22,924 nt of DNA, taken from the IMG/VR virus record IMGVR_UViG_3300033388_001512, positions 1 through 22,924 of that record; one strand, given 5' to 3'. The notes beneath the pieces are model-generated. The model did not search any database. It had not been told where the DNA came from and worked only from the letters and a program-made list of their open reading frames with translations. This document shows, in pieces, positions 1-20,389 of this stretch. Every line of letters begins with the position of its first letter. Within the stretch, counting starts at the first letter, position 1. The position numbers and the translations under genes were made by a program. Source of the stretch: a virus.

Positions 1-2141
1 TGTCTATTTTCAAATATAAACTTGCCATCCTCTCGAACAAAGAACCTACCGCCCTCTGCTTCTACCACCTGCTCAATCTCATATAAAGCAGTATTGCCAC
101 CATACCAAGCGACCGGAATAGTCTGTATCCCTGCGTCAAAATCCATATCGGCTAATGTAAAACCGCATTCTATCAATATAGCCTTAACATAATCAGCAGT
201 ATTTATATTTATATTCAACGACCCTTCAGGTAACTTATAGTTCCTCAAATACTCCATTTTGTCGTAAAAATGTATAGCTGTGGTCTTGTTTCTTAAACTA
301 GATTTTGGCAACTGAGAAACCCCATTAAATACTTCGCAATACTCACTCCCGAAGCCTAAACTTATTCTCCCGTTTCTATTAGGTTTAATATAATCAGTAA
401 TATTGTTTTCTTCACTATCCATATAACAAGATCTCTCTGTATGAGACGTGTAAGTGGTGTCGGCATCCATAAAACAATTAATTGTCTTATAAGTATCAAA
501 CATACCCTCTAAGACACAATCATTATCCCTTTCGCTATCAGTTCCGGGGTATCTGCCCCATAAAACACAATCTCTATCGGCTTCACTCTCAACCTGACCG
601 TATATAACACAATCTCTGTCTCCACCGCTATCAGTTCCATCACCTTTTCCATCTATAACACAGCTCCTGACAACTCCTTCTAATTCTCCACCCAAAATAG
701 CACTCACTGAAGTATGAGTCGAAGTATCCTGTCCCCATAATCTACAACTTCTCGAAACGCTTTCGATATCTTCCTGACCGCTTACAACACAATCAGTATC
801 TCTCTCCGAACTGGTCTTACCCCATACTCTACAATCTAAGTTTGTTTGATCTTCACTTAATCCATGCAAAACCGCATCTCTATCGCCATAGCTCTCAACC
901 TGACCAAAAGAAACTGCGTCTCTGTCAACTTCACTAGTGTCCATACCAGCAATAATACAGTCGTTATCTCTTTCGCTAGTTAGCGTCTGTTCTAATTCTG
1001 CTTCTATCATTAAAAAGCTCGGCCCAATATATACACTAAAATCTGCGTATTTACCCTCTTTTCTAATATATGAATTATCATCAGCATCTATTAATCCAAG
1101 GTTGCTACTCTTTTTGAGAATTATATCATGGTTCCATAATCTAGTTTCTGATATTTCGCTACCTGATATTTCAGCTCCAATCGAAGTATCATATAATCTA
1201 GCATATCCAGTAGCAGTTGCTCCTGTTCTATAAAAATGGCAATAGAAATAACTATCTAAATTTCCGGGAGCAATATCAAAATCTGCCATATTTAATATTA
1301 CTCTATTATCAGAAGGAAGATAATTATAAGTAGTTGCATGTAAAAAATTATAGCTTCCGAATGGAATAAAAGTATTTGTTTTAGTCCAATTGCCAGTTTG
1401 AGTAATATATAAATTCCAAGCATGAGCATAACCAATATATGTGCTATTTATCACTCTCATTTTTACTATATATCTATGACCTGCGATTAAAGTTATATTC
1501 CCTGAAGTAACCCATGTCGGACTAGATTCCGTAGTGCCTAAATTGGTTCCCGGAACTATTAAGTCTGTATCCATATCAAATAAACCAACATAAACTTTCC
1601 CCCCAGGCTCTGATTCTATTAATACCTCGAAATTAGTAATTATAGTCCCATCATTATTTCCGAATTCAAATGCGCTAGGATATTGAGTTATTTCATGGTA
1701 ATCAACAGCATTGGTCGCTTGATATAATATTTTATTAATATTAGTTTGAGTTGATGATATTAAATCAGCTTCTTGTATGATTACAACCTTAGGAGAATGT
1801 ATATAAGAAGCCCCGGATGATGTTTTATATCCTTGACCATATCTTTTACTACCAGATAATGTAATAGCACTAGATCTTACTCTTACCGGATTGGTAGAAG
1901 TAGTAGAAACCTCACTATCAACAACGAAATTATCATCAGTAACATTATTTAATCTACAATAAGCGGTAATTCCAACTCCGCTAGACCACAAAACAGCCTC
2001 AAAATAATATGTAGCATCGGAAAATTTGCTAACATCAATACGAATATCACCCCCTGGTAATACGCTAGTTGCATTATAAGAAGTGCTAGTAGTAGAAACA
2101 GAACTTGCACCAAAGCTATAATATTTTGCTATCTTATTCAT
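1..2141 (-). CDS. Tail tip / hub-adhesin protein (3' end beyond window)
   Basis: An open frame starts at ATG 2141 and stays open for 713 codons to the left edge, so the C-terminus is missing. Its start overlaps the stop of the previous gene by 8 nt. Residues about 5-125 and 265-385 look like two copies of one beta-sandwich domain (shared 'Y.RL...SE.S' pattern), with another beta-rich stretch at 160-255. Residues about 388-575 hold 13 short repeats with consensus R-D-x-C-V-x-x-G. From about 578 the sequence changes to a tail hub (gp27-like) pattern: 'DYIKPNRNGRISLGFG', then 'ADYVKAILIECGF', then 'EAEGGRFFVREDGKF'. I infer a tail-tip protein in which binding domains are fused to the hub core. 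The hub N-terminal piece seems to be the separate gene at 3374-3601. Confidence is high for a tail protein and moderate for the domain roles. Confidence 0.8.
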   Translation of the reverse strand, partial: MNKIAKYYSFGASSVSTTSTSYNATSVLPGGDIRIDVSKFSDATYYFEAVLWSSGVGITAYCRLNNVTDDNFVVDSEVSTTSTNPVRVRSSAITLSGSKRYGQGYKTSSGASYIHSPKVVIIQEADLISSTQTNINKILYQATNAVDYHEITQYPSAFEFGNNDGTIITNFEVLIESEPGGKVYVGLFDMDTDLIVPGTNLGTTESSPTWVTSGNITLIAGHRYIVKMRVINSTYIGYAHAWNLYITQTGNWTKTNTFIPFGSYNFLHATTYNYLPSDNRVILNMADFDIAPGNLDSYFYCHFYRTGATATGYARLYDTSIGAEISGSEISETRLWNHDIILKKSSNLGLIDADDNSYIRKEGKYADFSVYIGPSFLMIEAELEQTLTSERDNDCIIAGMDTSEVDRDAVSFGQVESYGDRDAVLHGLSEDQTNLDCRVWGKTSSERDTDCVVSGQEDIESVSRSCRLWGQDTSTHTSVSAILGGELEGVVRSCVIDGKGDGTDSGGDRDCVIYGQVESEADRDCVLWGRYPGTDSERDNDCVLEGMFDTYKTINCFMDADTTYTSHTERSCYMDSEENNITDYIKPNRNGRISLGFGSEYCEVFNGVSQLPKSSLRNKTTAIHFYDKMEYLRNYKLPEGSLNININTADYVKAILIECGFTLADMDFDAGIQTIPVAWYGGNTALYEIEQVVEAEGGRFFVREDGKFIFENR
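418..980 (-). repeat. 13 short protein repeats (solenoid-like) in the tail tip gene
   Basis: Residues about 388-575 of the tail tip protein contain 13 diverged units of 11-17 residues. The usual core is (S)-x-x-R-D-x-C-V-x-x-G, for example 'ERDNDCIIAG', 'DRDAVLHG', 'DRDCVIYG' and 'DRDCVLWG'. Ten of the 13 units keep a cysteine at the same place; the others have alanine. Regular short units with a fixed small or Cys residue and Gly turns suggest a beta-solenoid with a ladder of stacked residues. The DNA copies have drifted, so this is an old array. Confidence 0.8.
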
Positions 2142-2397
2142 TTATCTTTTCGAGTGCTTTCTCGATTTTAGCCTTTGACATTTTCCTTGAGAATACAACT
2201 ATCACTTCATCGCCTGTCATAGTAACCCCATTTATTCCGCTACCTTTTCTCTTTATACTAGATTGTTTATCAAAAAAACTATCCACATGACTAGCGTCCC
2301 AATCATCGGGAAAAATAGATCTGTCGAACACATAAGAAGTATAAGGCAACTTCCCATTAAACATTCTACTTTCTTTTCTTATTTTATCCGAATTCAT
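2134..2397 (-). CDS. Small distal-tail region protein, unknown function
   Basis: An 87-residue protein I do not recognise. It is mixed and charged, with no signal peptide or membrane segment. The middle, 'KGSGINGVTMTGDEVIVVFS', looks beta-rich and is followed by a Lys/Glu-rich helical tail ('KMSKAKIEKALEKINE'). A strong ribosome site (AAGGAGG, 6 nt before the ATG) lies inside the end of the preceding gene, which it overlaps by 14 nt; its own stop overlaps the start of the tail tip gene by 8 nt. The tight coupling suggests a tail-tip accessory or assembly protein (inference from position). Confidence 0.75.
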   Translation of the reverse strand: MNSDKIRKESRMFNGKLPYTSYVFDRSIFPDDWDASHVDSFFDKQSSIKRKGSGINGVTMTGDEVIVVFSRKMSKAKIEKALEKINE

Positions 2398-2770
2398 CTA
2401 AAACCTCCTTGTCTTTATCGTCTAGTTTGACCACAGATGCCTCGCTGTTGCCATTTTCATCATCAACCCATATATCGATAGCTTTATCATCAAAAATAGC
2501 CCTAACGCCAGTTAGGATTGTATGTTTAGTAACTCCGCCCATAAATTGGTCTTGTATCGCTTTATGCAAACCTCTGTATGTTATGGCTTTAGGCGGATAG
2601 TAAATCCTGCCTTTGCAATCAACATACATCATTGTTATTTTGCATTTACTTTTTCTCAGATAATCTTCCAGTAAAAACCAAGGCGATCTTCCACCAATTT
2701 CTTCTTTCAAAACACCTTCATTCTCTACTAGAGTCTTGCCATTGCTCAAATTAGCAACCCATCTAGCCAT
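2384..2770 (-). CDS. Distal-tail region protein, unknown function
   Basis: A 128-residue soluble protein without a recognised domain. It opens with 'MARWVANLSNGKTLVENEG', has an Arg/Lys-rich middle ('YLRKSKCKITMMYVDCKGRIYYPP') and ends in a very acidic tail ('KLDDKDKEVLDEFG'). The start is backed by AGAAGG four nt upstream. It lies in a tight string of genes between the tape measure and the tail tip protein, so a tail-tip or accessory role is likely, but only position supports that. Confidence 0.75.
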   Translation of the reverse strand: MARWVANLSNGKTLVENEGVLKEEIGGRSPWFLLEDYLRKSKCKITMMYVDCKGRIYYPPKAITYRGLHKAIQDQFMGGVTKHTILTGVRAIFDDKAIDIWVDDENGNSEASVVKLDDKDKEVLDEFG

Positions 2771-2787
2771 AGTGCCTTCTTTCTAAA

Positions 2788-3342
2788 TCAATAATAGGTA
2801 AGTTCAGCTCTTACAGCGAATGCGGTCTTTTCTCCCACACTCTCAGGTGAAGCAGACATTGCAACATAAAAATCATGTGAAGTCGAAGCTGACTGATTTC
2901 CGAGTGAAACACCACTTGCCTGACCTTCGGCATTAGTCCAGTTAGTATCACCCTGTTCTAAAGCTTGAAATGTAACTCCTGTCGGCGCCGAAGTAACAGT
3001 ATTCCCATCATAAGCATAAAATAAACCATTTTCAGTAGCCACGCTTGAAGTATGAGAAAAATTAAACTTTATGCAATCAGTAGTTAATAATGTATTGCAA
3101 TTAATCGTTCCGCCTCCCTTATCGCATTGATTAGATGAAATATACTTAATCCCTATCAAATGAGGCGAACCACAAGCGTCTGTATCAGTCCCAGCCGAAG
3201 TCCTGATGTGCATTGAGTCCTGATATTCTCCTACTGTGATCTTGTCACCATAACTTGCGCCATAAAAACCGATTAAATTAGTAGCGCTAATAGTAAAGTT
3301 CCAATCTGCACCATCATGCGCAGTAACAGTCCATGTAGCCAT
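2788..3342 (-). CDS. Beta-rich virion protein, probable tail or decoration component
   Basis: A 184-residue protein rich in Thr, Ser, Gly and Asn, without signal peptide or membrane segments. It looks all-beta: 'MATWTVTAHDGADWNFTISA', 'YGASYGDKITVGEYQDSMHIR' and, at the end, 'GEKTAFAVRAELTYY'. It carries six cysteines. I recall similar 'MATWT...GASYGD.ITVGEYQDSMH' proteins from uncultured phages, always as hypotheticals, but could not search for them. The start is supported by AAAGG 7 nt upstream. It is the first complete gene between the two proposed halves of the hub and most plausibly a surface or decoration subunit of the tail tip (inference). Confidence 0.75.
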   Translation of the reverse strand: MATWTVTAHDGADWNFTISATNLIGFYGASYGDKITVGEYQDSMHIRTSAGTDTDACGSPHLIGIKYISSNQCDKGGGTINCNTLLTTDCIKFNFSHTSSVATENGLFYAYDGNTVTSAPTGVTFQALEQGDTNWTNAEGQASGVSLGNQSASTSHDFYVAMSASPESVGEKTAFAVRAELTYY

Positions 3343-3373
3343 AATAAACCTTTCTTCTTAAATAAACATTTTC

Positions 3374-3601
3374 CTAATCTGGCGTATATTTGTTATCGTT
3401 ATTACTTAAAATAATATCTGCCTGAGCCGAGTGAGTTCCGCCCACAGGTTCTTTAATTGACCTCTCGACACTTAAACTCAACACTCTATGACTCTCATTG
3501 TCATAATTATCGTCTAAATCCCAATCTATTTCAACTTTCTGTATTATGTTTCTTTTTTTATGTGCTGTGTTTGTAGTAAACTCGGAACTCACATCCTGCA
3601 T
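3374..3601 (-). CDS. N-terminal fragment of a tail hub protein (split gene)
   Basis: A 75-residue protein that reads like the first domain of a larger phage tail hub: 'MQDVSSEFTTNTAHKKRN', 'KVEIDWDLDD', 'RVLSLSVERS', then 'SAQADIILSNNDNKYTPD' and a TAG stop. In hub proteins of this type, the 'L.N.D..YTPD' strand pair is normally followed by a 'Y..P.R...I..GF' segment in the same chain. Here that segment appears only in the tail tip ORF near position 400. The ATG overlaps the previous stop (TAATG), indicating coupled translation. Reading through the TAG meets TGA after 19 codons and does not restore hub sequence. It could be a working half of a two-chain hub or a relic; the intact frame and coupling favour a working gene. 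Confidence 0.75.
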   Translation of the reverse strand: MQDVSSEFTTNTAHKKRNIIQKVEIDWDLDDNYDNESHRVLSLSVERSIKEPVGGTHSAQADIILSNNDNKYTPD

Positions 3602-3972
3602 TAGCTCCTCGCTTCCGTTTCGATAATAGTTATTTTGGCTTGTATGTATGGATTAGTTCCACTACCTATAAAATCCTTAGCTGATTGTATTCTAGCTTTG
3701 ACTTTCTTCTGCACTAAATCAGGCCAACGATCTAGCCAACTTAATCTTAAATCTTCTGCTGAGTCTATAAAATCCTCGATATTATCATAATCAGCCTGCT
3801 TCATATTAGGATAATCAAACTCATATTGATATTTCCAATATAAAACATCTGTATTAGTAGCACCTCCTAATGTTTCTTGGTCGCTTTCGCCATATATTTT
3901 CGTTCTAGTCGGCTTTGTTGGTAAAGGTAGTTCTTGCTCATTGCTACCATCAATCAAACTTGGCTTGTTCAT
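3601..3972 (-). CDS. Minor tail protein in the distal-tail (Dit) position
   Basis: A 123-residue protein directly after the tape measure, where siphoviruses encode the distal tail protein. The N-terminal third is a Pro/Thr-rich strand ('ELPLPTKPTRTKIYGES'). The middle has 'YWKYQYEFDYPNMKQADYDNIEDFID', typical of small minor tail proteins that measure a loading segment, and the C-terminus is beta-rich ('PYIQAKITIIETEARS'). The start has AGGA 7 nt upstream. It is far shorter than classical Dit proteins, so it may be only the ring-forming part. Assignment rests on position and general pattern. Confidence 0.65.
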   Translation of the reverse strand: MNKPSLIDGSNEQELPLPTKPTRTKIYGESDQETLGGATNTDVLYWKYQYEFDYPNMKQADYDNIEDFIDSAEDLRLSWLDRWPDLVQKKVKARIQSAKDFIGSGTNPYIQAKITIIETEARS

Positions 3973-3974
3973 AA

Positions 3975-5789
3975 TTAAATCCTATCTAAGTTAAATACCG
4001 GACTCTGTCCTTTCCCTTTCATAACATCATCGATACTTTTGGCGATCTTCTCTGCATAGGCTCTCTGAGTCGAGTCATCTACCGGACTTGCAGGAACATT
4101 TATTGTGATATTCCCCATACCGCCTGCTTTGTCCAAAGGCACGACTGCCTCAGGCCCCGCTTCACCGACCATAGCTAAAGTTGGTCTAGTGACAATTCCG
4201 CCCTCAGCTAATTGAGGTATCATAGGAATATTAATCCCCGGCACTTTATTAAATCCACTGATTGCAGTATTTAGTGGCTTGATAACTGCATTGACTCCCG
4301 ACTTGAATGTGTTTTTTATACTATCCCACATTGAACTAAATATCATTTTAATACCATCTGCAATTCCTAGAGTCCCGTCTTTCCACCCATTGAATACATC
4401 TATTATTGTATTGATATAATTTGAAATACCATTATAAAGAGTTTTGAAATAATCTATTACTCCCAATACCCAAGATTTTACTATATCATAAGACTGAATA
4501 AACCCATTTATCATTTGTGATATAACCCAAACTATACCTTTTATCACATAAATAACTGCTAATATAGCTCCCACTAATGCTAATCCTAATACTATCGCCA
4601 AGAATTTTAATACTGGTATCAAAACAGGAGATATTAAATCCCACAACTTCTGTAATTCAGGTAATAACTGGTCTTTAATAGTCCCCCATAATGACAAAAT
4701 CGCACTCCATATCAAACCAACTACTAATTTCAAATTATCTAGTGCTGGTTGTATTATAACCATAATATTTCCCCATCCGCCCAAATAATCAATTAGCTTT
4801 TTGATAATTAAACCCAAAGCAACGCCAATAGCTATAAACGGCAACAGAGGAGATATAACTGCCCATATACCAGAAGCAACCCCATATAAAGCAGGAGCAA
4901 GCGCTCCTAATAATATACCTGCTACAATATATCCATTGTCTTTTATATATTCCATCAAATTTTTAGCCCAAGCAATCATCGTTTCGCTATTATTATCTAC
5001 ATAATTGACAAAAACACTTAATGCGTTTTTTACAGTATCGAATATCCCAGTTTGCTTAACAAACTCTGAACCGAATATAACTATATTATCCATCATATTA
5101 GACCAAAGCTGATTGAATGTTCCTGCTTGATTGGCGAATGCATCAGCGAACATTCCTCCTGCAGAGCCAGCATCCTCAAAAGCTTTCATCACAACTTCAG
5201 ATGTTAATTCTCCGCTATCTTTTAATGACTCCATCGATTTGCCAGTAGATTTTTCTATCATTTCAGTAAATGCCGGTATAGCTCCTTGAAATTGTCGAAT
5301 ATCCATGGCTGTTATCTTTCCAGTAGAGGCTATTTGTTGCAAATTCAATATAATTCTATCCATTTCAGGCGCACCCTTACCAGAAGCAGAAACAGCTTTC
5401 CCCACATTGAGCAACATATCTATTGCCTTATCACCGTCTTTGGTTATTGTCGCTAAGGCTTGAGTCCCTCTAGTTAGCCCTGCAAGCTCAAAAGGAGTGC
5501 TGGCAGCTTCTTTTTTTATTCTAGTCATTACTGCGTCTGCTTTGTCTGCAGATCCTAGTAAAGTAACAAAACCCATTCTCATAGCCTCCAAATCACCAGT
5601 AGTTTTCACAGCACTAAATGCCAATGCACCCATAGCAGTAGCAGCCCCTGCTAATCCCAATGCAACCTTGTTAGAGGCAGTAATAGACTCTTTGCTAAAT
5701 CCTTTTATTTTGCTAGTAGCTCGACCAATACCTTTTTCAAAGTCTGATAAATTAGCTTTGATTTTTACAATTATATCGCCGACATTCAT
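3975..5789 (-). CDS. Tape measure protein
   Basis: A 604-residue tail length-determining protein. The start follows the preceding stop with no gap (TAAATG). After a short basic N-terminus, residues about 65-245 match the tape-measure N-terminal domain: 'LEAMRMGFVTLLGSADKA', 'EAASTPFELAGLTRGTQALA', 'QIASTGKITAMDIRQFQG' and 'FNQLWSNMMDNIV'. Two long hydrophobic stretches follow (about 285-340 and 385-430), expected of a protein that may enter the host membrane during DNA injection. Near the C-terminus is the common 'LAEGGIVTRPTLAMVGEAGPEAVVPLD' signature, here given as 'LAEGGIVTRPT' plus 'GEAGPEAVVPL'. At roughly 1.5 angstrom per residue the tail would be about 90 nm (inference). No peptidase domain is seen. 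Confidence 0.95.
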   Translation of the reverse strand: MNVGDIIVKIKANLSDFEKGIGRATSKIKGFSKESITASNKVALGLAGAATAMGALAFSAVKTTGDLEAMRMGFVTLLGSADKADAVMTRIKKEAASTPFELAGLTRGTQALATITKDGDKAIDMLLNVGKAVSASGKGAPEMDRIILNLQQIASTGKITAMDIRQFQGAIPAFTEMIEKSTGKSMESLKDSGELTSEVVMKAFEDAGSAGGMFADAFANQAGTFNQLWSNMMDNIVIFGSEFVKQTGIFDTVKNALSVFVNYVDNNSETMIAWAKNLMEYIKDNGYIVAGILLGALAPALYGVASGIWAVISPLLPFIAIGVALGLIIKKLIDYLGGWGNIMVIIQPALDNLKLVVGLIWSAILSLWGTIKDQLLPELQKLWDLISPVLIPVLKFLAIVLGLALVGAILAVIYVIKGIVWVISQMINGFIQSYDIVKSWVLGVIDYFKTLYNGISNYINTIIDVFNGWKDGTLGIADGIKMIFSSMWDSIKNTFKSGVNAVIKPLNTAISGFNKVPGINIPMIPQLAEGGIVTRPTLAMVGEAGPEAVVPLDKAGGMGNITINVPASPVDDSTQRAYAEKIAKSIDDVMKGKGQSPVFNLDRI

Positions 5790-8003: not shown

Positions 8004-8683
8004 ATTATCCTGCCCGTTCTATCAATATAATCCATTAGATAATTCATTACATTCGGAGGTAGTTTTACCTCATTATCATAATTGAAAAATGTTTTACTCA
8101 CATTTCCAATTTTCAATGATTTTACTCTTGTGTCGCCATCATTATTTTCTTTGCCTTTAATTATCCATAATGCACATTCATAAACTGCAGTCTTAAACTG
8201 CTCCGGCAAAGGCCGGACTAATTGATATCGAGATGTCGAGTCTATCGCGCTGTCAAACTCCTCGCAAGTAATCTGGCCGGTAGAAACATCAAAGTCAGTA
8301 ATCCGCCTTACTTCGTTTTTATTAGTTCCGTCTATTATTCTCACAGCTCCATTATTCCAATAATCATCGTAATATGCTTCATCATCAGCTAATTCTGAGT
8401 CAATTAATGTTGTAGTAGAGCCGCTATCTGCAGTTCCACCAGACAAACTTTCTTCAGCATTAGGCATTTTTAGTGCTTGATTAGGTGTTAACTTCCAACC
8501 ATATCGAAAACTATTAATCAATCTAGTTGCTTCTATCAACGCTCTCTGTTTCTTGTTATCACTATTCTCAGTCCAATCAGTTACGTCAATTTTGTCATCA
8601 AAATAATCATTAGCCTCGTCTAGAGAAACAAAGCTATTAGCGAACATATCAGTTAGTGCATACTTAAACTTTTTTACTGCCAT
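8000..8683 (-). CDS. Head-tail connector (DnaT-like / gp6-like) with inserted beta domain
   Basis: A 227-residue adaptor below the portal. Residues 19-75 ('SFVSLDEANDYFDDKI', 'KKQRALIEATRLINSF', 'NQALKMP') and 158-227 ('LPEQFKTAVYECALWII', 'LPPNVMNYLMDYI') match the helical connector family sometimes annotated as DnaT-like. Between them, residues about 82-156 form an extra domain: 'GSTTTLIDSELADDEAYYDDYW', then 'GAVRIIDGTNKNEVRRITDFD', then 'TGQITCEEF'. This unit recalls a small beta domain I know from other virion proteins. Its start overlaps the glycosyltransferase gene upstream by 20 nt, so that cassette is translationally joined to the head genes. Confidence 0.8.
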   Translation of the reverse strand: MAVKKFKYALTDMFANSFVSLDEANDYFDDKIDVTDWTENSDNKKQRALIEATRLINSFRYGWKLTPNQALKMPNAEESLSGGTADSGSTTTLIDSELADDEAYYDDYWNNGAVRIIDGTNKNEVRRITDFDVSTGQITCEEFDSAIDSTSRYQLVRPLPEQFKTAVYECALWIIKGKENNDGDTRVKSLKIGNVSKTFFNYDNEVKLPPNVMNYLMDYIDRTGRII

Positions 8684-9506
8684 AACACTCCTTTACTATT
8701 TCCCAAAACTTTGCAGGAGCATTTTCCGTTTCTTTTTTTATCATATCATAATTAGAATAATCCCAACCATAACTCATTGCACCAATTCTATCATTATCTA
8801 CAATTAATCCACAACCGCACAGGTAAGCTTCTAATATAGTTCTGCCGAAAGGCTCATTCCAATTAGGTAAATGAATAAAATACTCATAACTCGAATACGC
8901 TTTCTTTTTAGCCTTTATTCCATTTAGAAATCCCATATATCTTAAATTACGATATTTGTTTAGCTCTACAATAACTTCGTGGTCGTGATTGCCATAGAAG
9001 TCGATATTATAATTCAAATTATTTAATGCGAAATCAACTATTCTGTCTAATCCCTTATGTTTAGAAAAATATCCTATCCATATAACGCTATTCTTCTTTC
9101 TATACACATTTTTGATCGGCTCGAAACCTATCACCGGACTTGGCACATATTTAACATTAGGACATTCAATCCCTATCGACTTATAATGCAAAGGACTCAA
9201 AAATATACTCGCTACTGCATTTCTAAATGGGTTTTTATGATTATCTAAACAGCTATAATCGTGTTCATATCTTATAAAGGGAACATTATCAGAAATCCAT
9301 TCTATATAATCAGAATGAAACTTCATTATATTATTAGTAATAGCCAAATCGACATTTTTTAATACTTTTTTGCTAAAATCATCAGGTCTTATTTTTATAA
9401 TCTTATACCCTAGCGACTCACCATATCTAATCATCTCCTCATTGGTCTGTTGAGCGCCTCCCTGATGTTCTTCTACAAAATAATCAGCTATCCAAGCTAT
9501 AATCAT
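8664..9506 (-). CDS. Glycosyltransferase, GT-B fold (GT4-like)
   Basis: A 280-residue predicted sugar transferase. The N-terminal half begins 'MIIAWIADYF' and has the acceptor-side 'HQGGAQQTNEEMIRYGE' segment (residues 14-30). The C-terminal half has 'VIWIGYFSKHKGLDRIVDFA' (141-160), a GT4-style donor domain start, and 'NEPFGRTILEAYLCGCGLIV' (217-236), the E-x7-E motif with E218 and E226 that contacts the nucleotide sugar. It is short for GT4 but both Rossmann halves are present. There are no membrane segments. It overlaps the methyltransferase before it by 23 nt and the connector after it by 20 nt. Acceptor is unknown; a virion protein is possible. Confidence 0.85.
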   Translation of the reverse strand: MIIAWIADYFVEEHQGGAQQTNEEMIRYGESLGYKIIKIRPDDFSKKVLKNVDLAITNNIMKFHSDYIEWISDNVPFIRYEHDYSCLDNHKNPFRNAVASIFLSPLHYKSIGIECPNVKYVPSPVIGFEPIKNVYRKKNSVIWIGYFSKHKGLDRIVDFALNNLNYNIDFYGNHDHEVIVELNKYRNLRYMGFLNGIKAKKKAYSSYEYFIHLPNWNEPFGRTILEAYLCGCGLIVDNDRIGAMSYGWDYSNYDMIKKETENAPAKFWEIVKECYGSKKV

Positions 9507-10092
9507 TGATAACCCTCATTAATAATTGCCCGTCACAAGGTATTTTCTCCCATTTTCTTTTTCCGATAACTTCCTGTATATCTTCCAATGTAATTAAGCT
9601 CTTGTGATTATCATATTCCATATTTATCTTTATATCTTCCTTAAAAAACTCTAACGGAGTTGAAATAATATGTTGCCTGCCATTATCCAGATTTCGTTTC
9701 AATGTATATAACGCAGTGTTCTTGTCTATATGTTCCAAAACATCAATCCACAAAATCAAATCGTATGTTTTTTTAATCTCTATGTCTTCTATCTTGCCTA
9801 TTTTTACAGAGTCATAAATGTTTTTGTTAATTTCCGATATTGCTCCGCTATATGCGTCTATACCGTCTATCTCTAAATGGCTAAGCTCCCCAGTCATACT
9901 CTCGACAGTGATCTGCAAATACTCCCTAGCCAAAAATCCGTATTTCCCATTTCCAAAACCGATATCCAATATAGATTTAGGCTTAATCCCCCACATCCAC
10001 CTTATAATATGAGGTATAGCCTCAGGACTGCTCGTCATCGTTCCTCGCTTTCCATTTTCCATTAATTTTTTCTTTAATTTGAACAATAGCAT
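9484..10092 (-). CDS. Class I SAM-dependent methyltransferase in glycosylation cassette
   Basis: Up to 202 residues. Motif I is clear ('ILDIGFGNGKYG', residues 41-52), followed by an acidic strand-end ('IDGIDAYSG', 75-83) and the 'YDLILWIDVLEHID' segment (110-123), all typical of a Rossmann methyltransferase using S-adenosylmethionine. It sits among glycosyltransferases and overlaps both neighbours, which suggests methylation of a sugar, as in glycan capping (inference). Two starts are plausible: ATG 10092 with AGGA 8 nt upstream, and ATG 10038 with GAGGA close by, giving 'MTSSPEAIPHIIRW'. The shorter form would overlap the previous gene by only 17 nt. Confidence 0.85.
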   Translation of the reverse strand: MLLFKLKKKLMENGKRGTMTSSPEAIPHIIRWMWGIKPKSILDIGFGNGKYGFLAREYLQITVESMTGELSHLEIDGIDAYSGAISEINKNIYDSVKIGKIEDIEIKKTYDLILWIDVLEHIDKNTALYTLKRNLDNGRQHIISTPLEFFKEDIKINMEYDNHKSLITLEDIQEVIGKRKWEKIPCDGQLLMRVINDYSLDS

Positions 10093-11413
10093 GGTCTGTT
10101 CCTATCAATTCAATATCGCCATCAATCCTTGCATTCAAATGAACACATTTAACCGACCAATCTATTACAGCCTTTTTGCCTTTGTTTTTAATATCTAACG
10201 CGAACAATACATCTGGTCCAGCGACAGCGCTTCTGCCACTACCATCAAATTTAACTTTCTCAAATACTCTGCTATCACACACAAAGCAATAAAACCCCCC
10301 ACCGCTTATTTCTTCTACACCTTTGTGCCTTAGTTGTTTGCTCCTGTGTCGCAGTATATCGCCATTTTCGCCTAAATCCATATCCCAAGCCCCAACCATT
10401 CTAAACTTCCATCTACTGACCTCTACGCCCTCAGCAAACCATATATTATCATCTAGTCTATCTTTTAATCTTGGTATTGCGTCTAACGCCGGGATAGTGT
10501 CATCTTCAATCATTGCATAATAAGGAGTTCTCAACATATCAACTGTAATATTCATATTCCTAGCGATAACTTTCCATCGTTTCTGGACAGTAGTCATTAT
10601 CTTTTCTTCATCGATAGTAATCATTCTGACACTATTCCAATTCTCTTGATCTGTTTCTAAAAACTCCCTCAAAATTCTATTTACGAATATATTGTTGCTA
10701 TTATCCAAAAATACCAAATCCATATTCCAAGTTTTCATTTCTTTCTTAGCCCGATCCAACCAATCTAAATACCTCAATATACAAAACTCTCTACTGAACG
10801 GAGTAAACAAAGTAATCTTGGCGTCTCTGTATCTGATAACGTGCTTCTCTCTTATTTTTTTCTCATTAATTTCAACATAATTATTATGTCTCCATAATTC
10901 TTTATTTAATAACCTGCCCGACTCAGTGACTAAAGTCACTTGCAACCAAAAATCCCAATCTTGGACATCTCTAAAATCCTCATCCCATATTGCGACATAT
11001 TTTCGATACAACATACCGCCTCTGATAGTGTCCTCTAACTCCAAAGAAGTCCTGAAAAACTCCAATCTGTTAATCATTGACTTGCCTTTCGCTCCACATT
11101 TTGAATAACAAAAATCTAATCCGAACTTTAATATAAAATTGACCTCCTCTTGCAAACATCCATCGAATAGCTCGTCTTTACTATCTAAAAACTTTATAAA
11201 TTCACCCTTTGACTTCGCAAACCCATAATTCCTGCATTTGTTAGCATTGTTAAAATTGACTTTATAAACATCAACATCATAACCACTCGAGACTTCGTAA
11301 TCGCAACCATCTAAAACTAAAATAACCTCCTTATTCACATCTTGTTTGAAAACGCTATCTAAGCACTTTTTGAGACCTTTTGCGGTTTTGCAATTTATAA
11401 TTACGCTAACCAT
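10022..11413 (-). CDS. Two-domain glycosyltransferase (GT2-like plus second GT-A-like domain)
   Basis: A 463-residue protein that looks like two fused GT-A domains. Residues 1-190 are GT2-like: 'MVSVIINCKT' opening, 'EVILVLDGCD' (29-38), 'FIKFLDSKDEL' with the metal-binding acidic pair (72-82), and 'DVQDWDFWLQV' (149-159) resembling the catalytic acid region. A second domain (about 198-430) starts 'AKITLFTPFSRE', has 'YYAMIEDDTIPALDAI' with an Asp-rich site at 303-305, and 'AGPDVLFALDIKNKGKKAVIDWSVKCVHL', here seen as 398-425 with a late His. It probably adds two sugars in sequence or makes a disaccharide (inference). It overlaps both neighbours; donors and acceptor are unknown. Confidence 0.85.
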   Translation of the reverse strand: MVSVIINCKTAKGLKKCLDSVFKQDVNKEVILVLDGCDYEVSSGYDVDVYKVNFNNANKCRNYGFAKSKGEFIKFLDSKDELFDGCLQEEVNFILKFGLDFCYSKCGAKGKSMINRLEFFRTSLELEDTIRGGMLYRKYVAIWDEDFRDVQDWDFWLQVTLVTESGRLLNKELWRHNNYVEINEKKIREKHVIRYRDAKITLFTPFSREFCILRYLDWLDRAKKEMKTWNMDLVFLDNSNNIFVNRILREFLETDQENWNSVRMITIDEEKIMTTVQKRWKVIARNMNITVDMLRTPYYAMIEDDTIPALDAIPRLKDRLDDNIWFAEGVEVSRWKFRMVGAWDMDLGENGDILRHRSKQLRHKGVEEISGGGFYCFVCDSRVFEKVKFDGSGRSAVAGPDVLFALDIKNKGKKAVIDWSVKCVHLNARIDGDIELIGTDHAIVQIKEKINGKWKARNDDEQS

Positions 11414-12627
11414 TTTATCACCAAGTCCCTAATAGTTTTTTTAATCCTGCTAAAGTCAAAATCATCGTTGAGGGGTAGTTTCTTTCTCATTTTGCTCACT
11501 TTTTTCACAATCCTCTCAAAATCCTCATAATCACCGAACTTAGCCATCTTAAAATAGTTTTCTGCTTCGGGGTGCTTCTCGATAATTTCTTTAGCAGTAG
11601 GGTATTCATAAAACACCACCGGAATACCGCAAGCCATAGCTTCTATTAACCACATTCCGAAACCCTCGAACTTACTAGAGTTAATCATCATTTTAGATTT
11701 TTTCATTATAGTAAACTTCTCATAATCCGAAGCTCCGAAATGAACATCGACTCTGTCTTTAATCCTCATCTCTGCTAATAATTTCTCCAAATCGCCCTGA
11801 TACGCGTAGCTAGTGATAATCTGTAATCTCCACTTGTCAGGTAGTTTGCTAAATGCCTTAAAGCTCTCTTTGAAGTTTTTACGATTAACAAACCTCCCGA
11901 CATAAACAACCCAATCTTTACGATCATAATCGGGAACAGAATGCAACACCCTTGAATTAACAACTGGGTATATAACTTCAAAGTCTTTTTTGTCTTTTTT
12001 CAACCACTTATAGGAATAGTCTCTGGTTAATTCAGAAACAGTCAATATCTTAATATCTCCTTTGAAACTAGTAATCTTATCAGCCATTGATTGCATATAT
12101 TCTCTTTCCATTGCATAATCCTCAGGCACGCATTTTTTGATATAAGGCAAGGCGTCAAATATATAACACATCACAGGCTTATTATATTTCTCAGCCAACT
12201 CAATAGCTCTTTCATTGCCGAATGTCGGAAAGCTAATATACAAATCAGCCAAAACGTCAAAATGTCTCTTGAAATCGTCAACTATATTTACATTTATGTT
12301 CTTATATAAACTAAAATCATTTTTGAATATAGGTTCTTTGTTGCTCCAATACTCGACATCAAATCCCATTAGTTCGCCTAACTCAGCCAAAGCGCATAAA
12401 AACTGATATCCGTTATATCTTCCCCCGGAATAAAAACTACAATTTTCCTCTATTACTGCTATTTTTTTATTCGCTATGGGATTTTTTATAGTATTAATCC
12501 CTTTTTTGTATTGATTATTATCGACTATCTCAAATCCAAACTCTTCGAGATGTTTTTTTATCTTCTCTTTCTCAGTAGCCTCATCAAACTCAATCATCTT
12601 TCCGTTTTTATTTTTCAGCCAAGTCAT
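11401..12627 (-). CDS. Glycosyltransferase, GT4-like, with short N-terminal extra domain
   Basis: A 408-residue GT-B enzyme. The first 35 residues ('MTWLKNKNGKMIEF' to 'GFEIV') form a separate small motif of the 'WLKNK.TG' kind seen at the ends of other phage proteins. The transferase proper begins near 53 ('NKKIAVIEENCSFYSGGRYNG'). 'WVVYVGRFVNRKNFKESFKAF' (239-259) marks the donor domain, and 'EGFGMWLIEAMACGIPVV' (321-338) is the E-x7-E motif. It overlaps the upstream gene by 20 nt and the next by 13 nt. I infer a role in building the same late glycan as its neighbours. No membrane anchor is visible. Confidence 0.88.
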   Translation of the reverse strand: MTWLKNKNGKMIEFDEATEKEKIKKHLEEFGFEIVDNNQYKKGINTIKNPIANKKIAVIEENCSFYSGGRYNGYQFLCALAELGELMGFDVEYWSNKEPIFKNDFSLYKNINVNIVDDFKRHFDVLADLYISFPTFGNERAIELAEKYNKPVMCYIFDALPYIKKCVPEDYAMEREYMQSMADKITSFKGDIKILTVSELTRDYSYKWLKKDKKDFEVIYPVVNSRVLHSVPDYDRKDWVVYVGRFVNRKNFKESFKAFSKLPDKWRLQIITSYAYQGDLEKLLAEMRIKDRVDVHFGASDYEKFTIMKKSKMMINSSKFEGFGMWLIEAMACGIPVVFYEYPTAKEIIEKHPEAENYFKMAKFGDYEDFERIVKKVSKMRKKLPLNDDFDFSRIKKTIRDLVIKWLA

Positions 12628-13570
12628 TAAACATCTCCTTTAGTTTCTCTGCCGTATTGGCATAAGAATAATTAAATGCGTGTTCCGAAGCTAGCCTGCC
12701 CATCTCTTTTGCTCTCTCCTTATTATCTACAACCCATTTCATTTTACGAGCAAGATCGCTTATAGAACATTTATACATTCTGCCACAATCCTCATTTTTA
12801 TAATGCGCATAGACCGCTTTAATTCTATTGCTGTCCACCTTAACCATACACTTCTTATCGAAATACTCGCTTATACCATGTCTATTAGGCACGATAGCTG
12901 TTATTCCCGAAGCCATAGCTTCCAAAGGAGTTATACCAAACCCTTCGCCCCTGCTCGGAAAGACAAAACAATCAGCTTTTTTCAATAACGCATACATCTC
13001 ATCATCTGAATATTCAGCTACGATACTTTCCATATTTTTGTATCTATGTAGCGGTGGAATTGTTCTTCCGTCTGCAATTCCTTTGAATATAATCCTTACA
13101 TCATCTCTACCTCGGAATGCTTTGTTGAATGCCTTAAACACCTCGTGCCAACCCTTTCTAACTGTAAAAGAGTCATAATGCAAAAATGTGAATACTTTTC
13201 TTTTCGGTCTCTCATGATACTTATAAATGTCACTATCATATCCCAACTGTATAACTTCTGTTTCGATACCATGCTTGAAAAACACATTACCGCAAAAATA
13301 ACTAGGGACAATCACTTTATCTGCATAGCTAATTGGCTCTGTGAAACGATCTGGGAGCTTATTCGTCTCGAACATAGTGTAGAGAACCTTATACCTTGCT
13401 TTGAGTTGTAAGATACTCGCTGGTGCAGAAAAACATAATCCGAAATCCCTTATTTTGTCATCCTCTTTTAATTCCAAACCCACCCTCGAACAATATTTCT
13501 TCAGGTTTTTCTTAGCCCTCCCATATCCATTGAGCTTGTCATTTTTTGTTGACAGAAATGTAACTTCCAT
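12608..13570 (-). CDS. Glycosyltransferase, GT4-like
   Basis: A 320-residue GT-B enzyme, the first gene of the glycosylation block after the capsid gene. 'LNGYGRAKKNLKKY' (13-26) is the N-terminal acceptor-side loop. 'TFLHYDSFTVRKGWHEVFKAF' (128-148) opens the donor domain and includes the 'RKGW' basic pair that usually contacts phosphates. 'SRGEGFGITPLEAMASGITAIVP' (206-228) has the E-x7-E motif (E209, E217). The start has AAAGG closely upstream ('AAAAGGAAAATG'). It is separated from the capsid gene by 58 nt without a good terminator, so it is probably transcribed with the head genes. Confidence 0.9.
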   Translation of the reverse strand: MEVTFLSTKNDKLNGYGRAKKNLKKYCSRVGLELKEDDKIRDFGLCFSAPASILQLKARYKVLYTMFETNKLPDRFTEPISYADKVIVPSYFCGNVFFKHGIETEVIQLGYDSDIYKYHERPKRKVFTFLHYDSFTVRKGWHEVFKAFNKAFRGRDDVRIIFKGIADGRTIPPLHRYKNMESIVAEYSDDEMYALLKKADCFVFPSRGEGFGITPLEAMASGITAIVPNRHGISEYFDKKCMVKVDSNRIKAVYAHYKNEDCGRMYKCSISDLARKMKWVVDNKERAKEMGRLASEHAFNYSYANTAEKLKEMFNDLAEK

Positions 13571-18874: not shown

Positions 18875-19232
18875 TTTTTTCTGCCTCCTCGCTATTTTTT
18901 ATGCTTTGCATAATAGCAATAATTTCTTCAGAGTCTACTTTCCGTTCATTAAAATCGCCTTCAATCCGTTGTGTTGGCATACCATCAACATAGTTTAATA
19001 TGTTTTTAATCTGCTGATCATTCCCATCTTGTATAGCAGATTTTATTATTCTTCTAACCAACATATAGGCGTATGTCTTTTTATCTTCGCCTTTAGGACA
19101 CTTTTGCAATTCTTCTTTTAATATAGATACTAAAGAAAACTTTGGCCGTCCGTTAGGATTTGCATTATTTCCCGGACCAAATGTTCCATCAGGTTGCCGG
19201 TTGGCTCCGTTTTTGTCGGTTTTTTCACTCAT
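18846..19232 (-). CDS. Terminase small subunit-like protein
   Basis: A 128-residue protein immediately before the large terminase. The N-terminus is the Gly/Pro/Asn-rich 'PDGTFGPGNNANPNGRPKFSL' type (residues 13-33), which I know from a family (DUF5681-like) encoded at the small terminase position. A helical region follows ('TYAYMLVRRIIKSAIQDGNDQQIKNILNYVDG'), and the C-terminus is charged. The start overlaps the ParB-methyltransferase stop as ATGA. It probably recognises the packaging site and loads the motor; this is family and position knowledge, since no helix-turn-helix is obvious. Confidence 0.75.
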   Translation of the reverse strand: MSEKTDKNGANRQPDGTFGPGNNANPNGRPKFSLVSILKEELQKCPKGEDKKTYAYMLVRRIIKSAIQDGNDQQIKNILNYVDGMPTQRIEGDFNERKVDSEEIIAIMQSIKNSEEAEKNVKTNGSGK

Positions 19233-20389
19233 AATTTTTTAGCCTTCTCTCCTGTAAATTGTTCCCATCTTTTAATAATTACATCAATGTATTTGGGGTC
19301 TAGTTCCATCATATAACACTTTCTGTCCAGCTGTTCACAAGCCATTAAGGTTGAGCCAGAGCCACCAAAGAGATCAAGGACTATGTCCCCAACCTTGCTA
19401 CTGTTTTTAATCCCTTTTGCACATAACTCTATCGGCTTCATTGTGGGATGTTCTTTACTCTTTAGTGGCCTATCTATCTCCCACACTTCTACCTGTTTTC
19501 TATCTCCGACAAAAGAAGATTTACTTTTTTCGTTCCAACCATAAAAGCAAGGTTCATACATCCTTTGATATTTAGCAGAACTCAGGACTAACTGTTGCTT
19601 CTTCCATATAATTGTCGCAGACCAATGAAAACCAGCGTCAACATACGCTAGTCTTGACCTCATGCCGTCTGGGCCAGGTGCTCCGAAAACATAAATATCT
19701 CCTGAGCATCTAGCAGACATCGTCTGGGCCAGATGCAAATTAAAATCGGCCCATTCTCTGTCTCCCATACTATCATTTTCTATGCTCCTTATCTTGTGTC
19801 TGGGGTTTTTTGAACTTCCATAGTCAACATTGTATGGTGGGTCTGTAAACACCATATCTGCCTTTTCCCCATCCATCAGTTTCTCTACATCCTCTGCCTT
19901 TGTGGCATCACCGCACATTAGTCTGTGGCCTCCTAATTGATATATCTCTCCTATTTTAGATTCGGGTTCATCTGGGATGTCTGGTATCTCATCTTCCTCT
20001 ACTTCTTTTTCAATCTTTAGGTCTTTCTCGTCAAAACCCATATCTAATAACTCCTCTATACTGTAATCATCGGCCAATATATCAAAGTCATCTTCACCAA
20101 ATCCCAAGTTATCTTGAACTATAAATCTTTTAATCTGTTCTGGTGTAAAGTCAGATCCGTCTTGCACCCAATCATCTGGTATCTCTGTCATTCCCAACTC
20201 TTGGAAAGCCCTGTATCTCATATTGCCTGCCAATATAATATTATCCTTATCAACTATGATAGGTCGCTTCTTCATCATCTTATCGGTGAAGTCATTATCC
20301 TTCTCAATAGAATGAACAAGTTTCTTGAACTTATCGTCTTCAATGTGACGAGGATTGTTTGGATTTGGTTTTATTACATTTAATTTCAT
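19229..20389 (-). CDS. ParB-like domain fused to DNA methyltransferase
   Basis: A 386-residue fusion. Residues 1-110 are ParB/sulfiredoxin-like: 'LNVIKPNPNNPRHI', 'RPIIVDKDNIILAGNMRYRAFQELG' (given here as 42-66). Residues 145-386 are an N-methyltransferase of the class with motif order IV then I: 'MVFTDPPYNVDYG' (179-191, DPPY 183-186), 'HPTMKP' (314-319), 'DLFGGSGSTLMACEQL' (339-354) and 'ELDPKYIDVIIKRWE'. It should methylate adenine N6 or cytosine N4. No paired endonuclease is visible. Its start codon lies inside a 19-nt inverted repeat arm and no ribosome site precedes it, so initiation may be controlled by RNA folding (inference). Confidence 0.92.
   Translation of the reverse strand: MKLNVIKPNPNNPRHIEDDKFKKLVHSIEKDNDFTDKMMKKRPIIVDKDNIILAGNMRYRAFQELGMTEIPDDWVQDGSDFTPEQIKRFIVQDNLGFGEDDFDILADDYSIEELLDMGFDEKDLKIEKEVEEDEIPDIPDEPESKIGEIYQLGGHRLMCGDATKAEDVEKLMDGEKADMVFTDPPYNVDYGSSKNPRHKIRSIENDSMGDREWADFNLHLAQTMSARCSGDIYVFGAPGPDGMRSRLAYVDAGFHWSATIIWKKQQLVLSSAKYQRMYEPCFYGWNEKSKSSFVGDRKQVEVWEIDRPLKSKEHPTMKPIELCAKGIKNSSKVGDIVLDLFGGSGSTLMACEQLDRKCYMMELDPKYIDVIIKRWEQFTGEKAKKL

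What the first reader, a model, noticed from the sequence alone, without database searches (positions are those of the whole stretch)
1..3601. Tail hub appears split, with about 3 kb and three whole genes between its halves
The 75-residue gene at 3374-3601 ends exactly at 'NNDNKYTPD', the point where hub proteins normally continue with a 'Y..P.R...I..GF' segment. That segment ('DYIKPNRNGRISLGFG') is found only near position 400, inside another ORF, after about 577 residues of unrelated binding and repeat domains. The gap holds three complete, coupled genes. Either the hub is built from two chains, with a permissive surface loop expanded into a gene cassette, or an old hub gene was broken by recombination and both parts kept. 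The intact frames and coupled start favour function.
Basis: partly seen in the sequence, partly recalled or inferred. Interest (0 to 1): 0.72.

Follow-up and report, generated by a model that had tools for sequence, protein, structure and literature searches.

The report
Phage tail hub in two pieces
In this family of bacterial viruses the ring-shaped hub at the tail tip is encoded by two separate genes, broken inside one domain, and the break is where different surface-binding modules are attached, so the hub is probably rebuilt from two chains rather than being a damaged gene.

Summary
The 75-aa gene (3374-3601, -) ends in NNDNKYTPD. The missing continuation (DYIKPNRNGRISLGFG) starts at residue 583 of another gene, whose full length, read from an identical longer contig, is 985 aa.

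Five divergent viral contigs (36-55% identity between chain 1 proteins) break the hub at the same loop: a 75-82 aa first chain, then a second chain whose N-terminus is an unrelated binding module and whose C-terminus is the rest of the hub. One relative (L021) has an unbroken hub bridging both pieces; the junction falls in its residues 104-109. Bacillus phage Stills also has an unbroken hub.

A fold comparison of L021 matches Mu gp44/VgrG-type hubs from their first strands; a model of the window's second chain alone matches the same hubs only from about residue 88. The break is therefore inside hub domain I.

The three genes between the chains occur only in the window's lineage; elsewhere the chains overlap by 4 nt or lie 86 nt apart.

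Most likely it is a working two-chain hub, assembled by strand complementation, with swappable binding modules at the break. Split hubs are known (lambda gpL/gpJ, RcGTA), but broken between domains: a new variant of a known kind. Co-assembly is inferred, not shown.

The parts
3374..3601 (-). hub chain 1 (75 aa): N-terminal strands of hub domain I
   Evidence: ORF; 36-51% identical to free-standing 75-82 aa proteins of L009, L013, L016, L020 and 30% over residues 1-103 of the unbroken hub of L021; good ribosome site, start overlaps the stop of the 123-aa gene
3..395 (-). hub chain 2, hub core (residue 583 on; continues left of the window to residue 985): rest of hub domain I, then HDII, HDIII, HDIV
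   Evidence: 38-45% identical to hub cores of L009, L013, L020, L021; fold match to hub proteins from residue 625 on; full length from L002
396..2141 (-). hub chain 2, N-terminal module (residues 1-582): probable jelly-roll binding domains then a short-repeat stalk
   Evidence: No sequence relatives in phage records, Pfam or PHROGs; weak jelly-roll/CBM-like fold matches at residues 19-129 and 146-249 on a low-confidence model
501..935 (-). stalk of at least ten 13-17 residue repeats (core [CA]-x-x-x-G), one predicted strand per repeat
   Evidence: repeat positions; strands at regular spacing between 434 and 558
2788..3342 (-). cassette gene 1 between the chains (184 aa, unknown)
   Evidence: ORF; no relative in the other loci; only a marginal hit to a Bacillus phage CM1 tail protein, E 0.08
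2384..2770 (-). cassette gene 2 between the chains (128 aa, unknown)
   Evidence: ORF; no relative found
2134..2397 (-). cassette gene 3 between the chains (87 aa, unknown); overlaps the start of chain 2 by 8 nt
   Evidence: ORF; no relative found
3601..3972 (-). 123-aa protein in the distal-tail (Dit/gpM) position between tape measure and hub
   Evidence: syntenic homologues in L013, L016, L020, L021 and a weak one in L009; L021 homologue hits phrog_1194, E 2e-7; distal-tail role inferred from position
3975..5789 (-). tail tape measure protein
   Evidence: Pfam TMP_3 E 5e-28, many PHROG tape measure families

Best explanation
The tail hub (the gp27-like baseplate hub protein at the end of the tail tube) is made of two polypeptides in this phage group. 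Chain 1 (75 aa) supplies the first strands of hub domain I (HDI). Chain 2 (985 aa) begins with an N-terminal cell-surface-binding module of 582 residues and then supplies the last strands of HDI plus domains II-IV. The two are expected to fold together by strand complementation, so that three copies of each form the usual trimeric hub ring. The binding modules would hang from the loop where the chains part. Shown here: the split, its position, its conservation, and the unbroken homologues. Inferred: co-folding, 3:3 stoichiometry, outward placement, and receptor binding by the modules. The exchange of module type between relatives suggests that the break site is where phages swap adhesion domains.
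For: (1) The same break occurs in five divergent contigs: window, L009, L013, L016, L020. Chain 1 is 75-82 aa and ends 2-9 residues after the [RK][FY]T motif; where chain 2 is complete (window, L009, L013, L020) its hub core resumes at I-[KLV]-P-[NK]-R. (2) The unbroken hub of L021 aligns to chain 1 (E 5e-14) and to chain 2 (E 1e-50), with the junction at residues 104-109. (3) Bacillus phage Stills has a one-gene hub after TMP and a 121-aa gene; the chain 2 profile hits it at 2e-17 (residues 404-540) and the chain 1 profile hits its N-terminus weakly, at 8e-4, against that one sequence. (4) The L021 model aligns with Mu gp44 (1wru Z 9.5; 9ki1_G Z 10.5) from target residue 3, whereas the model of the window's chain 2 alone aligns with 9ki1_G and 1wru from residue 89, 80alpha from 87, monocin from 88, NF5 Tal from 88. 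In chain 2 alone, residues 583-626 get no strands (pLDDT about 19-32); in the unbroken hub the same segment has strands. (5) In L009, L016 and L020 the chains overlap by 4 nt (GTGA/ATGA), typical of coupled translation. (6) Only one copy of each half was found per contig.
Against: The two chains were never modelled together; the single-chain models are of low to medium confidence (pLDDT 61 and 42), and the missing HDI in the chain 2 model could partly reflect poor modelling and a different alignment. Only six contigs are known, all metagenomic, with no isolate and no virion proteomics. In the window the chains are 1.2 kb apart, so tight translational coupling is not general. That the N-terminal modules bind receptors rests on weak fold similarity and context.
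Confidence: 0.82

Rival explanations
1. A hub gene recently broken by recombination; one or both parts are decaying remnants.
For: An unrelated module and three extra genes lie between the halves in the window.
Against: The same break with intact frames, starts and stops persists across five contigs at 36-55% chain 1 identity. No second, complete hub was found.
Confidence: 0.03
2. The two ORFs are joined during expression (programmed frameshift, stop read-through or hopping) into one hub chain.
For: In L009, L016 and L020 chain 2 is in the -1 frame with a short overlap.
Against: The open overlap in L020 is only ATCATGA, and I saw no slippery heptamer in L009. L013 has 86 nt with further stops between the chains; the window has 1,232 nt and three genes.
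Confidence: 0.04
3. Chain 1 is an independent small tail protein that has taken a different role, and chain 2 builds its own ring domain from its N-terminal module.
For: Chain 1 is always free-standing in the split group, and the N-terminal modules of chain 2 are beta-rich.
Against: The modules are unrelated between most relatives (jelly rolls, Ser/Pro-rich linker, tail-collar repeats), so they are unlikely all to replace one conserved domain. Chain 2 keeps the second part of HDI, conserved with the unbroken hub.
Confidence: 0.08
4. It is simply the known lambda gpL/gpJ type of split hub.
For: Two-protein hub, with genes between the two parts, as lambda K and I lie between L and J (PMC10721106).
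Against: In lambda the complete HDI plus an iron-sulphur domain lies in gpL and the break is in the HDII insertion. Here chain 1 has 75 residues and no cysteine, and the break is inside HDI.
Confidence: 0.03

Closest known systems
Phage lambda gpL + gpJ (with K and I between)
   Same: Hub made of two proteins; HDI material in the upstream gene; extra genes between the two; adhesion function on the downstream protein (PMC10721106).
   Different: Break between HDI and HDII with a complete HDI and an Fe-S domain in gpL. Here the break is within HDI, chain 1 has no cysteines, and the large adhesion module is at the N-terminus of the second chain, not its C-terminus.
RcGTA Hub (g13) + Megatron (g15)
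   Same: Two-protein hub that superposes on a one-protein hub (PMC10038345; PMC10721106).
   Different: Same break as lambda, not within HDI.
One-chain hubs: T4 gp27, Mu gp44, T5 pb3, 80alpha Tal, VgrG
   Same: Mu gp44, 80alpha, VgrG and T5 tip hubs are fold matches of the models; T4 gp27 is the canonical member.
   Different: All four hub domains in one polypeptide.
Bacillus phages Stills/Staley/Slash 'tail fiber' (1956-1970 aa)
   Same: Nearest isolates by sequence; same gene order TMP, about 121 aa, hub.
   Different: Unbroken, with a long region C-terminal to the hub, noted as carbohydrate-binding in the Stills record.

Membership tests
gp27-like baseplate hub protein (BHP) | hub fold (HDI-HDIV) in sequence order | tested here: met
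   Unbroken relative L021: Z 9.5-10.7 to Mu gp44, 3d37, 3cdd and others, spanning model residues 21-61 to 597. Window chain 2: Z up to 10.4 from HDII on, and to about residue 960 in diffocin, NF5, monocin and 80alpha. Models are of low to medium confidence.
gp27-like baseplate hub protein (BHP) | gene position: tape measure, distal tail protein, hub | tested here: met
   TMP 3975-5789, 123 aa 3601-3972, chain 1 3374-3601; same order in L009, L013, L016, L020, L021.
gp27-like baseplate hub protein (BHP) | homotrimer closing the tail tube | not testable with these tools
   No virion or complex structure.
lambda gpL/gpJ type split hub | complete HDI in the first protein | tested here: not met
   The junction falls at L021 residues 104-109, and HDI strands continue to about residue 155 in the L021 model, a segment encoded by chain 2.
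lambda gpL/gpJ type split hub | four-cysteine iron-sulphur domain at the end of the first protein | tested here: not met
   The 75-aa sequence has no cysteine.
lambda gpL/gpJ type split hub | hub divided over two genes with other genes between | tested here: met
   Three genes between in the window; none in L009, L016, L020 and only 86 nt in L013.

The most novel reading that the evidence does not exclude
A single domain of the tail hub is stably encoded as two interlocking chains across a phage lineage, and the chain break serves as an evolvable docking site where whole adhesion modules (and in one lineage extra genes) are swapped without touching the hub core; the small chain may also act as an assembly clip.
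Probability: 0.4. Interest if true: 0.62.

Novelty: new variant of a known kind. Interest (0 to 1): 0.5.

Why it matters
Hub proteins are among the most conserved parts of phage tail tips, and host range normally changes at their C-terminal ends or in separate fibres. A hub domain split into two chains at a loop that accepts unrelated binding modules would show another route to host-range change. It would also explain why small conserved proteins just before hub genes go unannotated, and why some hub genes in metagenomes look as if they lack their first domain. It can be tested directly by co-expression.

Tried and rejected
Close-relative scans of genome contigs with the hub core and with the tape measure found nothing, so no host could be named. 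Chain 1 has no usable Pfam or PHROG match; the sub-threshold Phage_TAC_4 hit (17.4 bits, cut-off 21.1) and the phrog_7939 hit are taken as chance. Phage-record searches with chain 1, with the chain 2 N-terminal module and with the L013 and L021 hubs found nothing. PDB sequence searches found no relative. A first tree run used an out-of-frame Stills segment and its tree was discarded. The corrected tree places L021 beside L020 with 71% support, and a distant outgroup cannot polarise it: one split with L021 outside, or a re-fusion in L021, both fit. A search of host groups could not be set up because no host genome handle was available. Literature searches gave lambda and RcGTA as the precedents for split hubs; no report of a break inside HDI was found in the open-access library, which is not proof of absence.

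Full report
What is there. The window carries a siphophage head and tail region on the minus strand. After the tape measure gene (3975-5789) come a 123-aa gene in the distal-tail position (3601-3972), the 75-aa gene (3374-3601), three genes of 184, 128 and 87 aa, and a long gene cut off by the window's left edge. The contig IMGVR_UViG_3300033144_001801 (38,631 bp) is identical to the window over at least 15.8 kb and supplies the rest: the long gene has 985 codons. DYIKPNR starts at residue 583.

Why it is one hub. A tape-measure-based search gave L009, and hub-profile and chain-1-profile searches gave L013, L016, L020 and L021. In L009, L013, L016 and L020 the order is distal-tail gene, 75-82 aa gene, large gene. 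The small proteins are 36-51% identical to the window's 75-aa protein. In L009, L013 and L020 the C-terminal part of the large protein is 44-45% identical to the window's; in L016 the contig ends before that part. L021 has no break: one gene carries both parts. The 75-aa protein aligns to its residues 1-103 (E 5e-14) and the window's second chain to residues 109 onward (E 1e-50 and 8e-11). The nearest isolates, the Bacillus megaterium phages Stills, Staley and Slash, also have a one-gene hub; for Stills and Staley the gene order was read and is the same. The profile match to Stills is good for the C-terminal part (2e-17) and weak for the N-terminal part (8e-4).

Where the break lies. The AlphaFold2 model of L021 (mean pLDDT 61) matches solved hubs (Mu gp44 and others, Z about 9.5-10.7), several of them from the targets' first residues; residues 192-364 are an inserted carbohydrate-binding-module-like domain (Z about 10), whose segment is also present in L009 and L020 but not in the window, and at most as a fragment in L013. 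The model of the window's 985-aa chain alone (mean pLDDT 42) matches the same hubs in nearly all rows only from their residue 87-127 on, that is from HDII, and gives no strands for residues 583-626. With the sequence alignment this places the break inside HDI: about 75 residues in chain 1 and about 44 in chain 2. The models are weak, so this rests mainly on the alignment to L021.

The break site as a module site. The N-terminal part of chain 2 differs between relatives: in the window about 400 residues with jelly-roll-like folds plus at least ten 13-17-residue repeats; in L013 a beta domain and a long Ser/Pro linker; in L016 and L020 three tail-collar-like segments; in L009 about 350 residues with a PHROG match of unknown function. 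No relative of the window's three cassette genes was found in the other loci. So the split is general to this group, and the cassette is a local feature of the window's lineage.

Expression. In L009, L016 and L020 the two genes overlap by 4 nt (GTGA or ATGA), in L013 they are 86 nt apart, in the window 1,232 nt. A frameshift fusion is unlikely: the overlapping open stretch in L020 is 7 nt, and L013 and the window have stops or genes between.

Known precedents. Lambda gpL/gpJ and RcGTA g13/g15 divide the hub over two proteins, with complete HDI in the first (PMC10721106; PMC10038345). The present case works like these (one hub from two proteins, extra genes possible between) but fails two defining features: chain 1 is not a complete HDI, and it has no iron-sulphur cysteines. 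I therefore call it a new variant of a known kind, and not a member of the lambda type.

What is not shown. Physical association, stoichiometry and receptor binding are inferred. The direction of evolution is open: one ancestral split with L021 outside it, or a re-fusion in L021, both fit the tree. The host is unknown.

Noticed in passing
window 8664-13570: A block of glycosyltransferase genes (three of Glycos_transf_1 type, one of family 2) and a methyltransferase between the P22-like coat protein gene and the head-completion genes; L021 starts with a glycosyltransferase-like gene upstream of its head-completion genes too.
   Followed up: partly
L007:1392-3791: A 799-aa protein with many [SD]-[ED]-R-x-A-K-[LIV]-x-G repeats near the head genes, apparently of the same short-repeat type as the stalk of the window's chain 2.
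   Followed up: no
L013:8822-8902: A 26-codon reading frame between chain 1 and chain 2 (MDKFRNKATCQNWIEGSVSDLWIGVI), perhaps a remnant of an earlier module start.
   Followed up: no
L009, L020, L021 hub core: A carbohydrate-binding-module-like domain of about 170 residues inserted in the hub after HDI, absent from the window and mostly from L013.
   Followed up: partly
window 19229-20389: ParB N-terminal domain plus N6/N4 DNA methylase fusion near the terminase region.
   Followed up: no
L008:7157-13014: A different, possibly lambda-like arrangement (314 aa, 140 aa, 1492 aa) in a contig that matched only by the tape measure; one ORF of that record gave a marginal chain 1 profile hit (E 2.7e-4).
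   Followed up: no
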